From NCBI GenBank assembly GCA_001311805.1, contig BBCA01000053.1, positions 1 to 18,925 of the forward strand: a stretch of 18,925 bases of DNA, in the 5' to 3' direction. This document shows, one piece after another, positions 5,197-16,501 of this stretch (within the stretch, counting starts at the first letter, position 1; every line of letters begins with the position of its first letter). The notes beneath the pieces were generated by a model. That model saw nothing but the letters and a program-made list of their open reading frames with translations, was not told the origin of the DNA and ran no database searches. Both the position numbers and the translations under genes were made by a program. The stretch is from Lentibacillus juripiscarius JCM 12147. GTDB taxonomy: Bacteria; Bacillota; Bacilli; Bacillales_D; Amphibacillaceae.

Positions 5197-5320
5197 ACAA
5201 TCCCCGCCCCGTCACTATCCTATGCTTATCCACACTATGAATTGCCTTTTATTTTTAAAGATTTGCTGGGACCACACCTAAAGCGGGTTCTAGTATCGTA
5301 TGGATAGCGGTGAATGCCAT

Positions 5321-7124: not shown

Positions 7125-8875
7125 TCATGGAGTATCAAGGTTCTGCACTTGGTACAAGTCATAATAGTGACCCTGCTGTTTCATCAGTTCATCATGAGAG
7201 CCCATCTCTTTGATTTCACCATCTTCAATAACGACAATCCGGTCAGCATGTGTGATCGTCGCCAGCCGGTGTGCCACAATAAAGGTGGTCCGGTCTGAGG
7301 CAAGCCGTTCGACAGCTTCCTGGATAATGTGTTCACTTTCCAGATCAAGGGCAGATGTTGCTTCGTCGAAAATCAGGATAGGCGGATTTTTCAGGAACAC
7401 GCGTGCAATGGCAATTCGTTGTTTCTGCCCACCGGATAGCTTAACACCACGTTCACCGACAAGGGTGTCATAGCCATGTTGCAGTCCTTCAATGAAGTCG
7501 TGCGCATTTGCTGCTTTAGCCGCAGCCACTACTTCTTCATCCGTAGCATCCGGATTACCCATGCGGATGTTCATCGCGATGGATTCACTGAATAGGATAT
7601 TGTCCTGCAGCACCATGCCAATATTATTCCGCAATGAACGTGCCTGCACATCACGGATGTCGGTCCCATCTACTTTAATGGAGCCGCCAGTTACATCATA
7701 GAATCGCGGGATCAAGCTGACAAGTGTTGACTTGCCACCGCCACTGATGCCGACGAATGCGATTGTTTCGCCTCTTTCGACATGGAGGGAAACATCTTTT
7801 AAGACATTCGTTTCTTCTTCTTCATATTTAAATGATACGTGGTCAATATCAATTTTTCCTTCGACCCTGCCAAGTTGTTTAGCATCGGGTTTATCGACTA
7901 TATCATACGATTCATTCATCAATTCAAATACACGGTCAATTGATGCAACAGACTGTGTCAGCACTGTTGAGGAACTGATTAGCCGGCGGAGCGGACTGTA
8001 CACCCGTTCCATATAGGTGACAAACGCAACCATAGTACCAATGGACACATTTCCACTGATGACCTGATAGCCGGCGAACGCAATGACCAGCAATGGTGCC
8101 AGGTCGGTAATGGTATTCATAACAGCAAATGTTTTTGCGTTCCAGTCGGTATGGTTTAATGCTTTATGGAGGAAGTTCTCGTTTCGTGTGTCGAATTGCT
8201 CTTGTTCATAATCTTCAAGGGCAAAACTTCTTGTTACCGGAATTCCCTGCACACGTTCATGCAAATGGCCCTGCACTTCAGCTAGTGACTGGGAGCGTTC
8301 CCTCGTCAGCCGTCGGAGCCTGCCATAGAAGTATTTGACCGAAATGCCATAAAACGGGAACAGAATGATCGCGACAATGGTCAGCCCGACATCCATTGTC
8401 AGCATAATCCCGATGGCAATAAGGATTGTAATCATATCCAGCCAAACATTCATCAGCCCGGTTACGACAAAAGTTTTCGTTTGTTCGACATCATGTATTA
8501 CCCGGGAAATAATTTCCCCGGTTTTGTCTGAGAATAGAACCTGAGGCTCAATTTTTGTATGTGGTCGAACAGTTTATCCCTGATGTCATAAAGGACTGTG
8601 TTGCCTACCCACTGCGCCAAATATTGTCGAAAGTATTCAATTGGCGGGCGCAGGACAAGAAATATAATAAAAGCACCGCCCATCAGCCAAAACAGTTGTT
8701 CCAGTTTTGCCGAATCGGTCAGGTCATCCGCATTAATGATATTATCGATAACGTATCTTAATATTAGCGGCAAAAGAAGCGGAATACCAATTTGACAATT
8801 CCGATAAGGACCGTTAGCAAAATTTTTCCATTTGTACGGACGGACGAACTGTAAATACTGTTTGATGCTGCTCAT
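7125..8875 (-). CDS. ygaD: YgaD-type ABC exporter, fused TMD-NBD (three indels)
   Basis: This is a half-size multidrug-type ABC exporter, expected to work as a dimer at the membrane. Restored, it is about 583 residues: an N-terminal six-helix domain and a C-terminal ATPase with Walker [10 protein letters not shown], signature [16 protein letters not shown], Walker [13 protein letters not shown] and H-loop IVAHRL. The start ATG at 8875 ([17 protein letters not shown]) is well conserved. Residues 19 to about 30 are garbled by two compensating indels (an extra base in the T-run 8823-8827, a missing one at 8789-8790 on plus), which should read close to [18 protein letters not shown] missing base in 8516-8519 then splits the gene; restoring it gives [20 protein letters not shown] before GLMNVWLDM. 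The downstream ATPase is intact. Its own promoter lies upstream. Confidence 0.93.
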
Positions 8876-13424: not shown

Positions 13425-14237
13425 TCAATTATCCAACTCATGCTCGAGAAATTCATTGATCGCATCCATCGTAAAGCCTTTGCGATACAGTGCTTCTTTC
13501 AGTTTTTGGCGAAGTTCATAGCCACTTGTTTTTGCTGGTATTTTCGTATCAGTTTTTCGCCTTGCTTGACAAGTGCTTCCCACTCTGCATCATCATCCTT
13601 TTCATCCTGCAGTTCTTTTGATACAGCCTGTACAACATCTCGAGTAAATCCTTTTTGGGTCAGCGTGCCCTGAAGCTGCTGGAGCTGCTGGCGAAAGGAT
13701 TTGTTTTTCCCGGTGTTTCGTTTTTTTATCGCCAGCTTCATCGCTTTGTCGAATTGGACATCATATGTATACTGCTCAACTGCTTCTGCGGCCAGTGCTG
13801 CATCCACACCTTTTTCCAGCAGCTCCTGTTGGACGAGCATCGGTCCTTTTGCTGCGGTGCTGATACGCGTGCGGACAAACGCATCAGCAAACTGTTTGTC
13901 ATCCGTCAGCCCTTGAGCAGCCAGTTTGTCCATTATTTTCGTAATATGTTCTTCATCCACTTCTTTGGTTTGCAGATAATCCCGAATTTCTTTTTTCGTC
14001 CGCATCCGGTAGCTTAAATAGTTGATAGCAAGGGAATATCCTTTTTGAAGTGTATCTTTTTGAATGAGCGCGGTAATGGTCGCCTCGTCCAGCTCCATGT
14101 CTTTGTGCAGGCGGTAATCGACAAGCACGGATTCATCCACACTGAAGGCATACCTTTCCCCTTGGCCATCCGAAAGAAAAATATTAAATCGGTCATGACG
14201 CTTTTTTTGCGTCGTAATCCGGGAAATTTTTTGTCAT
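13425..14237 (-). CDS. recX: RecX, regulator of RecA (two frameshifts)
   Basis: RecX binds RecA filaments and modulates recombination and the SOS response. The raw sequence offers only a 213-residue frame, but both ends are cut by indels. At the 5' end, an extra base in the T-run 14227-14232 masks the real start, ATG 14237 with GGAGGAT before it; corrected it reads MTKISRITTQKKRHDRFNIF and continues LSDGQGERYAFSVDESVLVDYRL. At the 3' end, a missing base in 13529-13533 replaces the real tail TSGYELRQKLKEALYRKGF and TMDAINEFLEHELDN (stop 13425-13427). Corrected length is about 270, as in B. subtilis. The three-helix repeats with YLSYRMRTKKEIRDYL and FRQQLQQLQGTLTQKGF are typical. Confidence 0.92.
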
Positions 14238-14288: not shown

Positions 14289-14377
14289 AAAGTGAAGGAT
14301 GTTTTGAAAAAATCATTTTTCTATCATAAGAAACCTCTTATAGAGAAGTGATAATCCTGTTAAATGAGGTGATTAAA

Positions 14378-15264
14378 ATGACTATTTTAATGACTGGCGG
14401 TACTGGATTTGTCGGCAGGAATTTGACGAAAGTCTTAACGGACACGGGGCACCACGTCTATATCACCACCAGATCCCCTGAGAAATATTTTAACACGGAA
14501 CAGGTTACCTTCATCAGCTACGATTACCCAGTGGCAGATTTGCCAAAAATCGAAGCTATCATTAATCTTGCCGGTGATTCCCTGTTCGGCTACTGGACCA
14601 AATCAAAAGAAGACGCCATCCGCAAAAGTCGGATTGAGACAACACAAAAGTGATTGAAATGATGGAACAGATGGAGCATAAACCCGAAGTCTTGATTAGT
14701 GGTTCAGCCATTGGGTTCTATGGTACAGCGGAAGATTTGATATTTACCGAAGCAACCGAACGAGCCGGTAATGACTTCCTTGCTGAGGTTGTCGAAGCGT
14801 GGGAACGGACGGCCAGTCAAGCGGAACAGTTTGGTGTTCGCACCGTTTATGCCAGGTTTGGTGTTATTCTTGGCGAGGAAGGCGCTCTCCCGCTTATGAA
14901 ACTTCCGATTAAATTATTTGCCGGTGGGCGAATTGGCAGCGGAGAGCAGTGGATTTCCTGGGTCCACATAAACGATGTGGTAGACATGATACGATTTTGC
15001 CTGGCGAATAAACAAATCAGCGGACCTGTTAACGTCACTGCCCCTCACCCAGCACGAAACAAAGATTTCACAAACACGCTGGCCCGTGTATTGCGACGGC
15101 CTGATTGGCTTCCGGCTCCAATTCTGGCTGTCCGCACCGCCCTCGGTGACATGAGCATGCTGATCACAAGGGGGCAATATGTATTACCTGGAAAAGCCGA
15201 CATGCATGGGTACGAATTTTCCTATCCATACCTTGAAAAGGCACTATTTGAAACGGAACATTAA
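14378..15264 (+). CDS. yfhF: YfhF, TIGR01777-type NAD-dependent epimerase (one frameshift)
   Basis: This is a member of the extended SDR/epimerase family found in most bacteria; substrate and role are unknown. The N-terminus MTILMTGGTGFVGRNLTKVL holds the Rossmann motif GGTGFVG, followed by INLAGDSLFGYWTKSKEDAIRKSR, a family hallmark. The frame ends at 14652 because one A is missing in the run 14646-14649; restoring it gives RIETTQKVIEMMEQM and continues GSAIGFYGTAED, FGVRTVYARFGVILGEEGALPLM, QWISWVHINDVVDMI and GPVNVTAPHPARNKDF to 15264. Total about 295 residues, the family norm. GAGGTGAT precedes ATG 14378; the in-frame upstream start at 14348 lacks a site. Divergent from recX, co-directional with yfhE. 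Confidence 0.93.
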
Positions 15265-15294
15265 ATTGTCGCCTGTCTGGTATATTTCTCCCAT

Positions 15295-15303
15295 TGTGGA
15301 TAA
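15295..15303 (-). promoter_or_regulatory. DnaA box, perfect consensus
   Basis: TGTGGATAA is the complement of TTATCCACA. It lies between yfhF and yfhE, about 190 bp from the main DnaA-box cluster. Confidence 0.6.
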
Positions 15304-15340
15304 TCCTAATAGTATATCCTTGGGAAAATGAGGTGGTTAA

Positions 15341-15466
15341 ATGGGGCAAAAATCGATTGAACAGGAGCGTTACTTGTCCAAAACACAGGAAGTTCTTTAT
15401 CAGAAGGAGTTCAGACGGGCGGATCGGGAGTACAGCCGAAACTCCAAACAAGGGAACCGCATGTAA
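15341..15466 (+). CDS. yfhE: YfhE family small protein
   Basis: This 41-residue basic protein runs MGQKSIEQERYLSKTQEVLY, then QKEFRRADREYSRNSKQGNRM. The KTQEVLYQKEFRRADR core is what I recall for YfhE, a short Bacillaceae protein of unknown function coded next to yfhF. GAGGTGG precedes the ATG by 5 nt. The stop codon TAA falls in the loop of the gene's own terminator, so the last codons form the upstream arm. Confidence 0.82.
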   Translation: MGQKSIEQERYLSKTQEVLYQKEFRRADREYSRNSKQGNRM

Positions 15467-15488
15467 TCATGCGCTTCCCTTGTTTTTT
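15446..15488 (+). terminator. Terminator of yfhE, overlapping its 3' end
   Basis: ACAAGGGAA and CGCATG pair with CATGCG and TTCCCTTGT, with one C-C mismatch between, around the loop TAAT. Six Ts follow. It is very stable and overlaps the last yfhE codons. Confidence 0.88.
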
Positions 15489-15670
15489 ATGCACAATCTA
15501 TCCACAAGATTTGTGTAGTTTGTTAATAACCACAGCTAGTCCTGCTATGAAAACCCCGGATATTCATAACTGCATTGTGGATAAGTCAAGATATCGTTGT
15601 GGATTTTGTGCATAAGTATGTGAATCACCTGTTATCCTGCCCTTCTACCTGTTCATAACCTTGTGAATAA
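15487..15670. promoter_or_regulatory. Cluster of DnaA boxes outside the replication origin
   Basis: Boxes matching TTATNCACA on either strand: TTATGCACA (15487-15495, +), TTATCCACA as TGTGGATAA (15576-15584, -), TGTGCATAA (15607-15615, -) and TGTGAATAA (15662-15670, -). One-mismatch boxes: CTATCCACA (15498-15506, +) and TGTGGATTT (15598-15606, -). The first two sit at the terminator end, and the two at 15598-15615 are directly adjacent. The region is AT-rich. No dnaA, dnaN or plasmid replication gene is near, so a DnaA titration or regulatory cluster, as known in B. subtilis outside oriC, is more likely than an origin. Confidence 0.65.
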
Positions 15671-15873
15671 GTAAGAATTCCTTCAGCCGCTTCTCTTGCG
15701 TCGTGTTTATACTTTCCAAAACCATAACCTGCACGCACATTCACTGTTTCAAACCCTAGTGCAGCTTGCCAGATTCTTTCCCGTTCAACATTCCAGATAT
15801 AGATGATAACGGTACTTCCCCCGAGGACTTCAATTTCAAAATCCTCCTCATGAAACATTGCCCGAAGCATCAT
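15625..15873 (-). CDS. Small hypothetical protein
   Basis: The 82-residue reading frame starts MMLRAMFHEEDFEIEVLGGS and continues with a hydrophobic strand (TVIIYIW), then RIWQAALGFETVNVRAGYGFGKYKHDAREAAEGIL. It looks like a small soluble alpha/beta protein, with no signal peptide and no membrane helix. I do not recognise it. An in-frame stop lies about 27 nt upstream of the ATG at 15873, but no ribosome binding site precedes that ATG or the next in-frame ATG at 15858. Amino-acid composition looks protein-like. Its 3' end overlaps a DnaA box. It may be truncated by an indel. Confidence 0.55.
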   Translation of the reverse strand: MMLRAMFHEEDFEIEVLGGSTVIIYIWNVERERIWQAALGFETVNVRAGYGFGKYKHDAREAAEGILTYSQGYEQVEGQDNR

Positions 15874-16083
15874 AATTTTGTTAGGTTTGTCACAGTTTTA
15901 TGATAGAGCATCAAACAGCTTACCACGATATGCCATCCCCCATCCCGTTCCCTTTTAGAACATTTTAATATATGTGTGTGACAAGCACAACGAAACAGGC
16001 TTTTCTCACTCTGAATCGTGATAGGATTTAACTATCCAGCTACACAACGAATATTGGTTTATTATTTTGCAGAGTGTGATGCT

Positions 16084-16501
16084 ATGAGTTTAGAAAAAAA
16101 TTGCCTACAATATTAAGTTTTTACGGGAACAGAATGGATGGACCCAGGAACACCTGGCTGATCAGTTACATATTTCCCGCTATGTCATCATCCGCTGGGA
16201 GACTGGAAAAGTCACCCCGGATCTGGAATCACTAGTGAAGCTAAGTGAACTTTTCGGAGTCACCATCGATCACTTAGTCGGAAATCATTCGTTTCGTGAA
16301 GACTTGCTAAAAGACTTTAAGCGGATTTACAGCTCAAAGTCAAAGTCATTTGATGAAGAAGCAGTAGAGCTTGTCCAATATATAATGGAGAATCCTATAT
16401 TAAAAGAGCAGCTTTTCCGGATGCGCACCCTGCCTGTCCGGAAACAGCATGCCATACATAATATGCTGGAAAATTTCATCGATCAAGTTGACCGAATGTA
16501 G
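16084..16501 (+). CDS. XRE-family transcriptional regulator (one frameshift)
   Basis: This is a DNA-binding protein of about 138 residues with an N-terminal Cro/C1-type helix-turn-helix. The raw sequence has only the tail open from 16235; the start is masked by an extra A in the run 16094-16100. Removing it gives MSLEKIAYNIKFLREQNGWT, then QEHLADQLHISRYVIIRWET (helices 2 and 3), GKVTPDLESLVKLSELFGVT and IDHLVG, the classic XRE layout. The C-terminal 70 residues are helical and charged, with no recognised sensor motif. The usual alanine-valine-serine of the recognition helix (SRQAVSKWE) is replaced by SRYVIIRWE. A short inverted repeat GATAG/CTATC near 16019-16035 could be an operator. The preceding stretch 15874-16083 holds no other feature I can support. 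Confidence 0.82.

What the first reader, a model, noticed from the sequence alone, without database searches (positions are those of the whole stretch)
15295..15670. DnaA-box cluster around yfhE, far from any origin gene
Within 376 bp there are two perfect TTATCCACA boxes (15295, 15576), three more matching TTATNCACA (15487, 15607, 15662) and two one-mismatch boxes (15498, 15598). The boxes at 15598 and 15607 abut, and those at 15487 and 15498 are 2 bp apart. By chance a 9-mer should appear about 0.14 times in a window of this size on both strands. B. subtilis is known to have DnaA-binding clusters outside oriC that influence initiation; a cluster at yfhE may be a comparable titration site. 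One further isolated perfect box is at 5226-5234.
Basis: partly seen in the sequence, partly recalled or inferred. Interest (0 to 1): 0.7.

Follow-up and report, generated by a model that had tools for sequence, protein, structure and literature searches.

The report
Conserved DnaA-box cluster beside yfhE
Just after the small gene yfhE this bacterium carries an ordered row of binding sites for DnaA, the protein that starts chromosome copying; [quoted passage not shown]

Summary
The cluster is real. The window has six TTATNCACA sites (shuffle mean 1.06), five of them at 15295-15670. One detail is wrong: 15598 has two mismatches, not one.

The window is Lentibacillus-like (Bacillaceae); its own genome is not held. 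In 80 relatives' yfhF loci plus the window, 40 of 81 have at least 3 boxes in 300 bp within 4.5 kb 3' of yfhF, 0 of 81 in an equal stretch 5'; 300 shuffled motifs reach at most 1. The boxes share a layout: a profile from 28 relatives, window excluded, hits 15592-15671 at E 5e-13. In 18 chosen genomes, 38 of its 41 hits below E 1e-4 lie at yfhE (15), gcp (15), ywlC (3) or dnaA (5); the last three are known DnaA regions in B. subtilis. yfhF lies 0.65-1.05 Mb from dnaA in 12 of 13 relatives.

Verdict: an additional member of the known class of DnaA-box clusters outside oriC, at a place not among the 20 strongest of B. subtilis. Most likely it sequesters DnaA and delays initiation; that is inferred. 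Box spacing avoids 15-19 bp, suggesting an ordered DnaA oligomer.

The parts
15341..15466 (+). yfhE, small protein of unknown function, the gene 5' of the cluster
   Evidence: Pfam PF14152 YfhE, E 1.1e-07, 32.2 bits, cut-off 27
15446..15485 (+). hairpin followed by a T run: probable intrinsic terminator of yfhE; its T run leads into the first box
   Evidence: RNA fold -25 kcal/mol, z -8.3 against shuffles; the simple terminator scan listed none in 15200-16200; the script found a terminator-like hairpin 2 bp before the first box
15487..15495 (+). DnaA box TTATGCACA, 5' edge of the cluster
15498..15506 (+). DnaA box CTATCCACA, one mismatch; offset -100, the common offset in relatives being -101 (6 of 35)
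15521..15529 (-). DnaA-like box, one mismatch (TGTTAATAA on +); 23 bp after the + box, close to the recurrent 22-bp facing pair
15576..15584 (-). DnaA box TTATCCACA, perfect; offset -22
15598..15606 (-). degenerate box AAATCCACA, two mismatches; offset 0
15607..15615 (-). DnaA box TTATGCACA; offset +9, abuts the one before
15619..15627 (-). DnaA-like box, one mismatch (TGTGAATCA on +); offset +21
15650..15658 (-). DnaA-like box, one mismatch (TGTTCATAA on +); offset +52
15662..15670 (-). DnaA box TTATTCACA; offset +64, one base past the common +63
15592..15671 (+). match to profile R1, built from 28 relatives' clusters without the window
   Evidence: 43.2 bits, E 4.9e-13, model positions 20-98 of 101
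15295..15303 (-). perfect DnaA box between yfhF and yfhE, outside the shared layout; role unclear
14650..15264 (+). second part of yfhF (TIGR01777-like epimerase), anchor gene of the comparison; the reading frame is broken near 14650
   Evidence: PF08338 and PF01370; homologues of Lentibacillus and Virgibacillus
13499..14140 (-). recX
   Evidence: three RecX Pfam domains
15625..15873 (-). open frame of a small protein without a Pfam match, convergent with yfhE; its 3' end overlaps the last boxes
   Evidence: ORF family 26 of the clustering, 10 members; no Pfam hit

Best explanation
The stretch 15487-15671 is a DnaA-box cluster outside oriC, of the same kind as the B. subtilis clusters at gcp/ydiF, ywlC and sda. 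Shown by sequence: about nine boxes or near-boxes in under 200 bp, most on one strand, at recurrent distances (22, 9, 12, about 31, 12), right behind the probable yfhE terminator, in a position and orientation shared by many Bacillaceae loci. Inferred: DnaA binds cooperatively as an ordered oligomer, so the site holds a sizeable number of DnaA molecules; it is copied in the earlier part of the cycle, so its capacity doubles after initiation; together with the gcp and ywlC clusters it lowers free DnaA and delays the next initiation at oriC.
For: Excess of boxes in the window. Conservation: 40 of 81 loci with at least 3 boxes in 300 bp 3' of yfhF, 0 of 81 on the 5' side, 300 shuffled motifs at most 1 locus. 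Genes 3' of the cluster differ between loci while the cluster stays. In the 28-sequence alignment all 16 invariant or nearly invariant columns lie in box slots, mean column identity 55% (the sequences were anchored on the abutting pair, so the two central slots are favoured by construction). Profile R1 without the window: window E 4.9e-13; in the 80 loci all 69 hits at E up to 0.05 lie 3' of yfhF, in 46 loci, 18 of them outside the training set, 62 of 69 in the same orientation. 18 chosen genomes: of 41 hits with E below 1e-4, 15 at yfhE, 15 within 3 kb of gcp, 3 at ywlC, 5 at dnaA, 3 elsewhere (places matched by hand). By a threshold of 2 exact and 5 near boxes in 300 bp, 14 of 20 genomes have a yfhE-side cluster, 12 of 20 have it together with one at gcp, 9 of 20 with gcp and ywlC. 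The window cluster (4 exact, 8 near) is as dense as three dnaA-dnaN regions (3 exact, 6-8 near). B. subtilis DnaA binds the gcp, ywlC and sda regions in vitro with apparent Kd 0.15-0.25 uM for ATP-DnaA, like oriC at 0.16-0.21 (PMC4447404, section 8 read). Deleting six such clusters causes early initiation in B. subtilis (PMC13220808 and PMC5295017, passages).
Against: No binding or replication data exist for this locus here. 29 of 81 loci have fewer than two boxes in any 300 bp there (a few of these loci are cut short), so the site is absent from parts of the family, e.g. 6 of 8 Oceanobacillus-titled loci; 5 of 18 genomes lack a yfhE hit below E 1e-4. The 13 large-contig genomes were taken from the 73 that have the abutting pair, so they are not a random sample, and model E-values are rough. 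In B. subtilis yfhE is not among the 20 strongest DnaA regions (the full list of 269 was not seen). One review says the B. [quoted passage not shown] The window's box at offset 0 is degenerate.
Confidence: 0.75

Rival explanations
1. The cluster is a DnaA-dependent switch of transcription for a neighbouring gene, as at sda in B. subtilis.
For: DnaA activates sda through such boxes. In some loci the cluster precedes a gene on the same strand (families 12, 39 and 9). One window box, 15295, lies 5' of yfhE, and a promoter-like site on the minus strand lies at 15311-15340.
Against: In the window the cluster lies between the 3' ends of yfhE and a convergent frame, behind a strong hairpin. The genes 3' of it differ between loci while the cluster stays. 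No sigma-70-like site was found inside 15487-15671.
Confidence: 0.1
2. The cluster is an active platform that changes the nucleotide state of DnaA, like datA or DARS of E. coli, rather than a passive sink.
For: Box geometry shared with gcp and tandem spacing genome-wide that avoids 15-19 bp, 0 of 150 listed pairs. A review states that whether B. subtilis has regulators of DnaA-ADP/ATP interconversion remains unknown.
Against: B. subtilis lacks IHF and the datA and DARS loci. Such geometry is also expected of a purely cooperative binding site. No biochemical data.
Confidence: 0.12
3. It is a second or relic replication origin.
For: Box density equals that of three dnaA-dnaN regions, and abutting boxes occur in both.
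Against: G+C across the cluster is 0.38-0.42 in 50-bp steps, so no strongly AT-rich stretch (not compared with oriC), and the longest DnaA-trio run is 2 in the window region and 2 to 4 in 15 relatives' clusters. The trio test is weak: three oriC controls gave 6, 4 and 3 and random pieces have a 95% point of 4. No dnaA or dnaN homologue in the window; yfhF is 0.65-1.05 Mb from dnaA in 12 of 13 genomes.
Confidence: 0.02
4. Chance or base composition.
For: The motif is common in such genomes: 170 TTATNCACA sites in one 3.7-Mb genome against 132 of the reversed motif.
Against: Shuffles, shuffled motifs and conservation at one place.
Confidence: 0.01

Closest known systems
DnaA-box cluster at gcp(tsaD)/ydiF of B. 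subtilis and relatives
   Same: Similar box layout: a profile trained on yfhE clusters alone hits within 3 kb of tsaD with E below 1e-4 in 15 of 18 genomes; similar density; lies beyond gene ends in B. subtilis.
   Different: Other locus; opposite orientation of the layout relative to oriC in the two genomes I compared by hand (G122, G016); known to bind DnaA in B. subtilis.
DnaA-box clusters at ywlC and sda/yqeG of B. subtilis
   Same: Dense clusters outside oriC, some with abutting boxes.
   Different: Weaker profile matches than gcp and a different spacing mix; sda is a promoter activated by DnaA.
oriC of Bacillaceae (dnaA promoter and dnaA-dnaN regions)
   Same: Box density and abutting boxes; weaker profile matches.
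   Different: oriC lies at dnaA and has an unwinding element; the yfhE cluster lies far from dnaA and no clear unwinding signs were seen (weak test).
datA and DARS of E. coli
   Same: Non-coding DnaA-box loci outside oriC.
   Different: They work with IHF, and DARS2 also with Fis; B. subtilis lacks IHF. No sequence likeness was tested here.

Membership tests
DnaA-box cluster (DBC) outside oriC, Bacillus type | several TTATNCACA boxes within a few hundred bp, beyond chance | tested here: met
DnaA-box cluster (DBC) outside oriC, Bacillus type | lies outside oriC, not at dnaA | tested here: met
   no dnaA or dnaN homologue in the window, best tblastn E 0.063; relatives' yfhF 0.65-1.05 Mb from dnaA in 12 of 13; the window's own genome is not held
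DnaA-box cluster (DBC) outside oriC, Bacillus type | arrangement shared with established clusters | tested here: met
   strong for gcp, weaker for ywlC and oriC
DnaA-box cluster (DBC) outside oriC, Bacillus type | binds DnaA in vitro or in vivo | not testable with these tools
   needs footprinting or ChIP
DnaA-box cluster (DBC) outside oriC, Bacillus type | loss advances initiation | not testable with these tools
   reported for six B. subtilis clusters deleted together
oriC | AT-rich unwinding element with DnaA-trio beside the boxes | tested here: inconclusive
   none seen, but two of three oriC controls score no better than random pieces in the trio test and G+C was not compared with oriC
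oriC | adjacent to dnaA/dnaN | tested here: not met
datA/DARS (E. coli) | box core with IHF or Fis sites and an effect on DnaA nucleotide state | not tested
   no IHF or Fis site search was made; biochemistry is needed
DnaA-regulated promoter | boxes overlap a promoter of a conserved target gene | tested here: inconclusive
   no sigma-70-like promoter inside the cluster; genes 3' of it vary; other promoter types not covered

The most novel reading that the evidence does not exclude
Across the Bacillaceae the yfhE and gcp clusters are copies of one defined nucleoprotein element: a phased array that assembles a DnaA oligomer of fixed size and acts on DnaA state or release, a Gram-positive counterpart of datA/DARS. 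The element can change its place in the chromosome: strong matches lie elsewhere in a genome with no yfhF match (G010, L084) and in two genomes that lack the yfhE cluster (G013, G147).
Probability: 0.2. Interest if true: 0.85.

Novelty: new member of a known kind. Interest (0 to 1): 0.55.

Why it matters
Clusters of DnaA boxes outside oriC have been studied in B. subtilis, where their importance is disputed. A cluster that is kept at one place beside yfhF/yfhE, in one orientation and with a recurrent box layout over many genera, while the genes 3' of it change, is evidence for selection on the cluster itself. The shared layout gives a profile with which such clusters can be sought in other Bacillaceae genomes, and a precise hypothesis (ordered, phased DnaA oligomer) that footprinting and spacing mutants can test. 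It bears on the open question whether Gram-positive bacteria regulate DnaA through chromosomal loci.

Tried and rejected
Chance and composition were rejected by shuffles, shuffled motifs and the 5' side of yfhF. A second origin was rejected mainly for lack of dnaA/dnaN and distance from dnaA; the test for unwinding signs is weak. RNA elements: no Rfam match at gathering score in the window, no tRNA. A structured RNA over the cluster was rejected: the fold of 15490-15600 has z -0.19. A terminator before every cluster was not found: 19 of 44 clusters have a terminator-like hairpin within 160 bp 5' against 35 of 264 random places; on the 3' side, minus strand, 11 of 44. A sharp helical period was not resolved: periods 9.5 to 11.5 fit the listed distances about equally. 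Okumura et al. 2012 is not held; its results are taken from passages of two reviews. Literature searches: only one search used the word yfhE; judged by listed titles and abstracts, no hit joins yfhE with DnaA, but the hits with one mention (two are B. subtilis expression papers) were not opened, and most subscription papers are outside the library. The locus titled B. subtilis DE0224 (L078) has no cluster at yfhF; its genome is 4.6 Mb with two frames between the gcp-side cluster and tsaD (L111), unlike the published B. subtilis table, so I do not take it as B. subtilis. Rows dropped: one search used 37 of the 39 positive loci (without L055 and L077, Fictibacillus loci close to others) plus the window, 15 of 20 gcp and 15 of 20 ywlC loci (left out: L133, L134, L135, L137, L138; L154, L155, L156, L158, L170, most with few boxes). 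One search took 39 loci and the window; 5 had no 9-bp pair; there offsets 0 and +9 are occupied by construction. One search measured the 150 listed of 260 pairs; genomes are related, so its P values are indicative only.

Full report
WHAT WAS CHECKED. The six TTATNCACA sites of the window are at 5226, 15295, 15487, 15576, 15607 and 15662; 200 shuffles give a mean of 1.06 and none reaches six. With one mismatch to TTATCCACA there are 15 against 5.63. Five sites in 376 bp has a Poisson probability of about 3e-11.

WHERE IT IS. The best named homologue of the yfhF piece is from Lentibacillus lipolyticus at 75% identity, with other Lentibacillus and Virgibacillus next. The order is recX(-), yfhF(+, frame broken), yfhE(+), cluster, a convergent small frame. 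The window's genome is not held. yfhE ends in a strong hairpin with a T run (15446-15485; -25 kcal/mol, z -8.3), and the first box begins in that T run. The window has no dnaA or dnaN homologue (best tblastn E 0.063).

CONSERVATION. Counting loci with at least three TTATNCACA in 300 bp: 40 of 81 (window included) within 4.5 kb 3' of yfhF, 0 of 81 in an equal stretch 5' of it; 300 shuffled motifs reach at most 1. 12 of 81 have two, 29 of 81 fewer than two. Sites in total: 212 on the 3' side against 14 on the 5' side. Genera of positive loci by record title include Lentibacillus, Virgibacillus, Ornithinibacillus, Oceanobacillus (2 of 8 titled so), Aquibacillus, Sediminibacillus, Terribacillus, Gracilibacillus, Melghiribacillus, Pontibacillus, Fictibacillus, Priestia, Peribacillus, Rossellomorea, Sutcliffiella, Pseudalkalibacillus and Allobacillus. 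Among loci without a cluster are those titled Salimicrobium, Alkalibacillus, Alteribacillus and Salibacterium. The genes 3' of the cluster differ.

LAYOUT. In 38 clusters the commonest distances between same-strand boxes (up to one mismatch) are 9 bp (31 clusters), 12 (25), 31 (20), 42 (19), 54 (16) and 22 (15), and 22 bp for facing boxes (20). In 500 random placements no distance class exceeds 19; so 9, 12, 31 and the facing 22 lie above every trial, 42 equals the maximum, and 54 and same-strand 22 are only above their own means of 5.3 and 6.7. Aligned on the abutting pair, which 35 of 40 inputs have, further minus boxes recur at -22 (13 of 35), +21 (7), +51/52 (19) and +63 (11). The window has boxes or near-boxes at -22 (15576), 0 (15598, degenerate), +9 (15607), +21 (15619), +52 (15650) and +64 (15662), preceded by 15498 at -100 and 15521. 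In the alignment of 28 relatives the 16 invariant or nearly invariant columns lie in box slots and the mean column identity is 55%; the two central slots are favoured by the choice of sequences.

PROFILE TEST. A sequence-only profile (R1) from these 28 relatives, window excluded, finds window 15592-15671 with 43.2 bits, E 4.9e-13. In the 80 loci all 69 hits at E up to 0.05 are 3' of yfhF; they lie in 46 loci, 18 of which were not used in training; 62 of 69 have the same orientation. In 18 whole genomes 41 hits have E below 1e-4. These genomes were chosen by me: 13 with large contigs from the 73 genomes that have the abutting pair, and five behind named loci, so they are not a random sample. 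Matching places by hand with the gene searches: 15 at yfhE (13 genomes, four of them with a training locus; two genomes with two hits), 15 within 3 kb of gcp/tsaD, 3 at ywlC, 5 beside dnaA, 3 elsewhere. The tool scored only the best 150 candidates of a first look per genome, and E-values of the model are rough.

GENOME-WIDE SPACING. The abutting pair TGTGNATAATGTGNATAA occurs in 73 of 146 genomes of the family, 85 places, against one place for the reversed pattern. Of the 30 places fetched, 10 are at gcp (9 of them with ydiF on the other side), 5 at ywlC, 7 at yfhF/yfhE or the gene between, 3 between dnaA and dnaN, 2 at sda/yqeG, 3 elsewhere (assignment by sequence clustering and recalled gene identities for tsaD, ywlC, ydiF, sda, yqeG and dnaN). 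With gaps of 0-30 allowed, 59 of 60 genomes have tandem pairs (260 places against 11 for the reversed control, sums by hand and). Among the 150 listed, start-to-start distances of 9-14 bp occur 50 times, 15-19 none, 20-22 22 times, 23-29 13 times, 30-34 40 times, 35-39 25 times. This avoids the opposite face of the helix at short range, but periods from 9.5 to 11.5 fit about equally, so the exact period is not resolved.

POSITION. In 13 genomes with yfhF and dnaA on one large contig, taken as circular, yfhF is 650-1045 kb from dnaA (15-29% of the contig length) in 12 and 1606 kb (35%) in one (G136), which has no yfhE cluster. In 20 genomes, with a threshold of 2 exact and 5 near boxes in 300 bp, 14 have a cluster in the yfhF locus, 15 beside gcp, 16 beside ywlC, 12 both yfhE and gcp, 9 all three.

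WHAT IS KNOWN. Smith and Grossman (PMC4447404, section 8 read, passages) list the 20 strongest DnaA regions of B. subtilis in vitro; the first eight are oriC (two), ywcI, gcp, trmE, ywlC, yqeG/sda and yydA; yfhE is not among the 20 and the word does not occur in the main text; the list of 269 regions was not seen. Reviews (passages of PMC13220808, and PMC5295017) report that deletion of six clusters outside oriC causes early initiation; [quoted passage not shown] Work on Thermotoga maritima oriC (passages of PMC10316083) links box direction and phasing to DnaA oligomer assembly.

READING. Membership in the class of DnaA-box clusters outside oriC is supported by each of the three sequence features tested. 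The function, holding DnaA and delaying initiation, is by analogy. An origin is unlikely from gene context and distance; the search for an unwinding element was weak. A promoter switch is unlikely in the window because of the convergent, terminated setting. The shared geometry leaves room for the bolder reading that yfhE and gcp clusters are one defined element that acts on DnaA.

Noticed in passing
window 14350-15264, 7125-8875, 16101-16501: Several genes appear split over two frames (yfhF, an ABC transporter, a regulator-like frame), which suggests assembly indels or decay in this contig.
   Followed up: no
window 15625-15873 (-): Small frame without a Pfam match, convergent with yfhE, of an ORF family with 10 members in the loci examined.
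   Followed up: partly
window 5226-5234: Isolated perfect DnaA box between two divergent frames (an ion-channel-like one by eye, and an aminotransferase class III gene).
   Followed up: no
L084 1491-1573; L201; L116 1445-1541; L082 1445-1529: Strong matches to the cluster profile at other places in genomes, one of which has no yfhF match (G010): the element may have moved.
   Followed up: partly
L078 and its genome G147: Record titled Bacillus subtilis DE0224 whose gcp neighbourhood and 4.6-Mb size do not fit the published B. subtilis table; the label may be wrong.
   Followed up: partly
tsaD and ywlC loci: Two of the known DnaA-box clusters sit beside tsaD (gcp) and ywlC, both recalled as tRNA threonylcarbamoyl genes; the reason for this pairing is unknown.
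   Followed up: no
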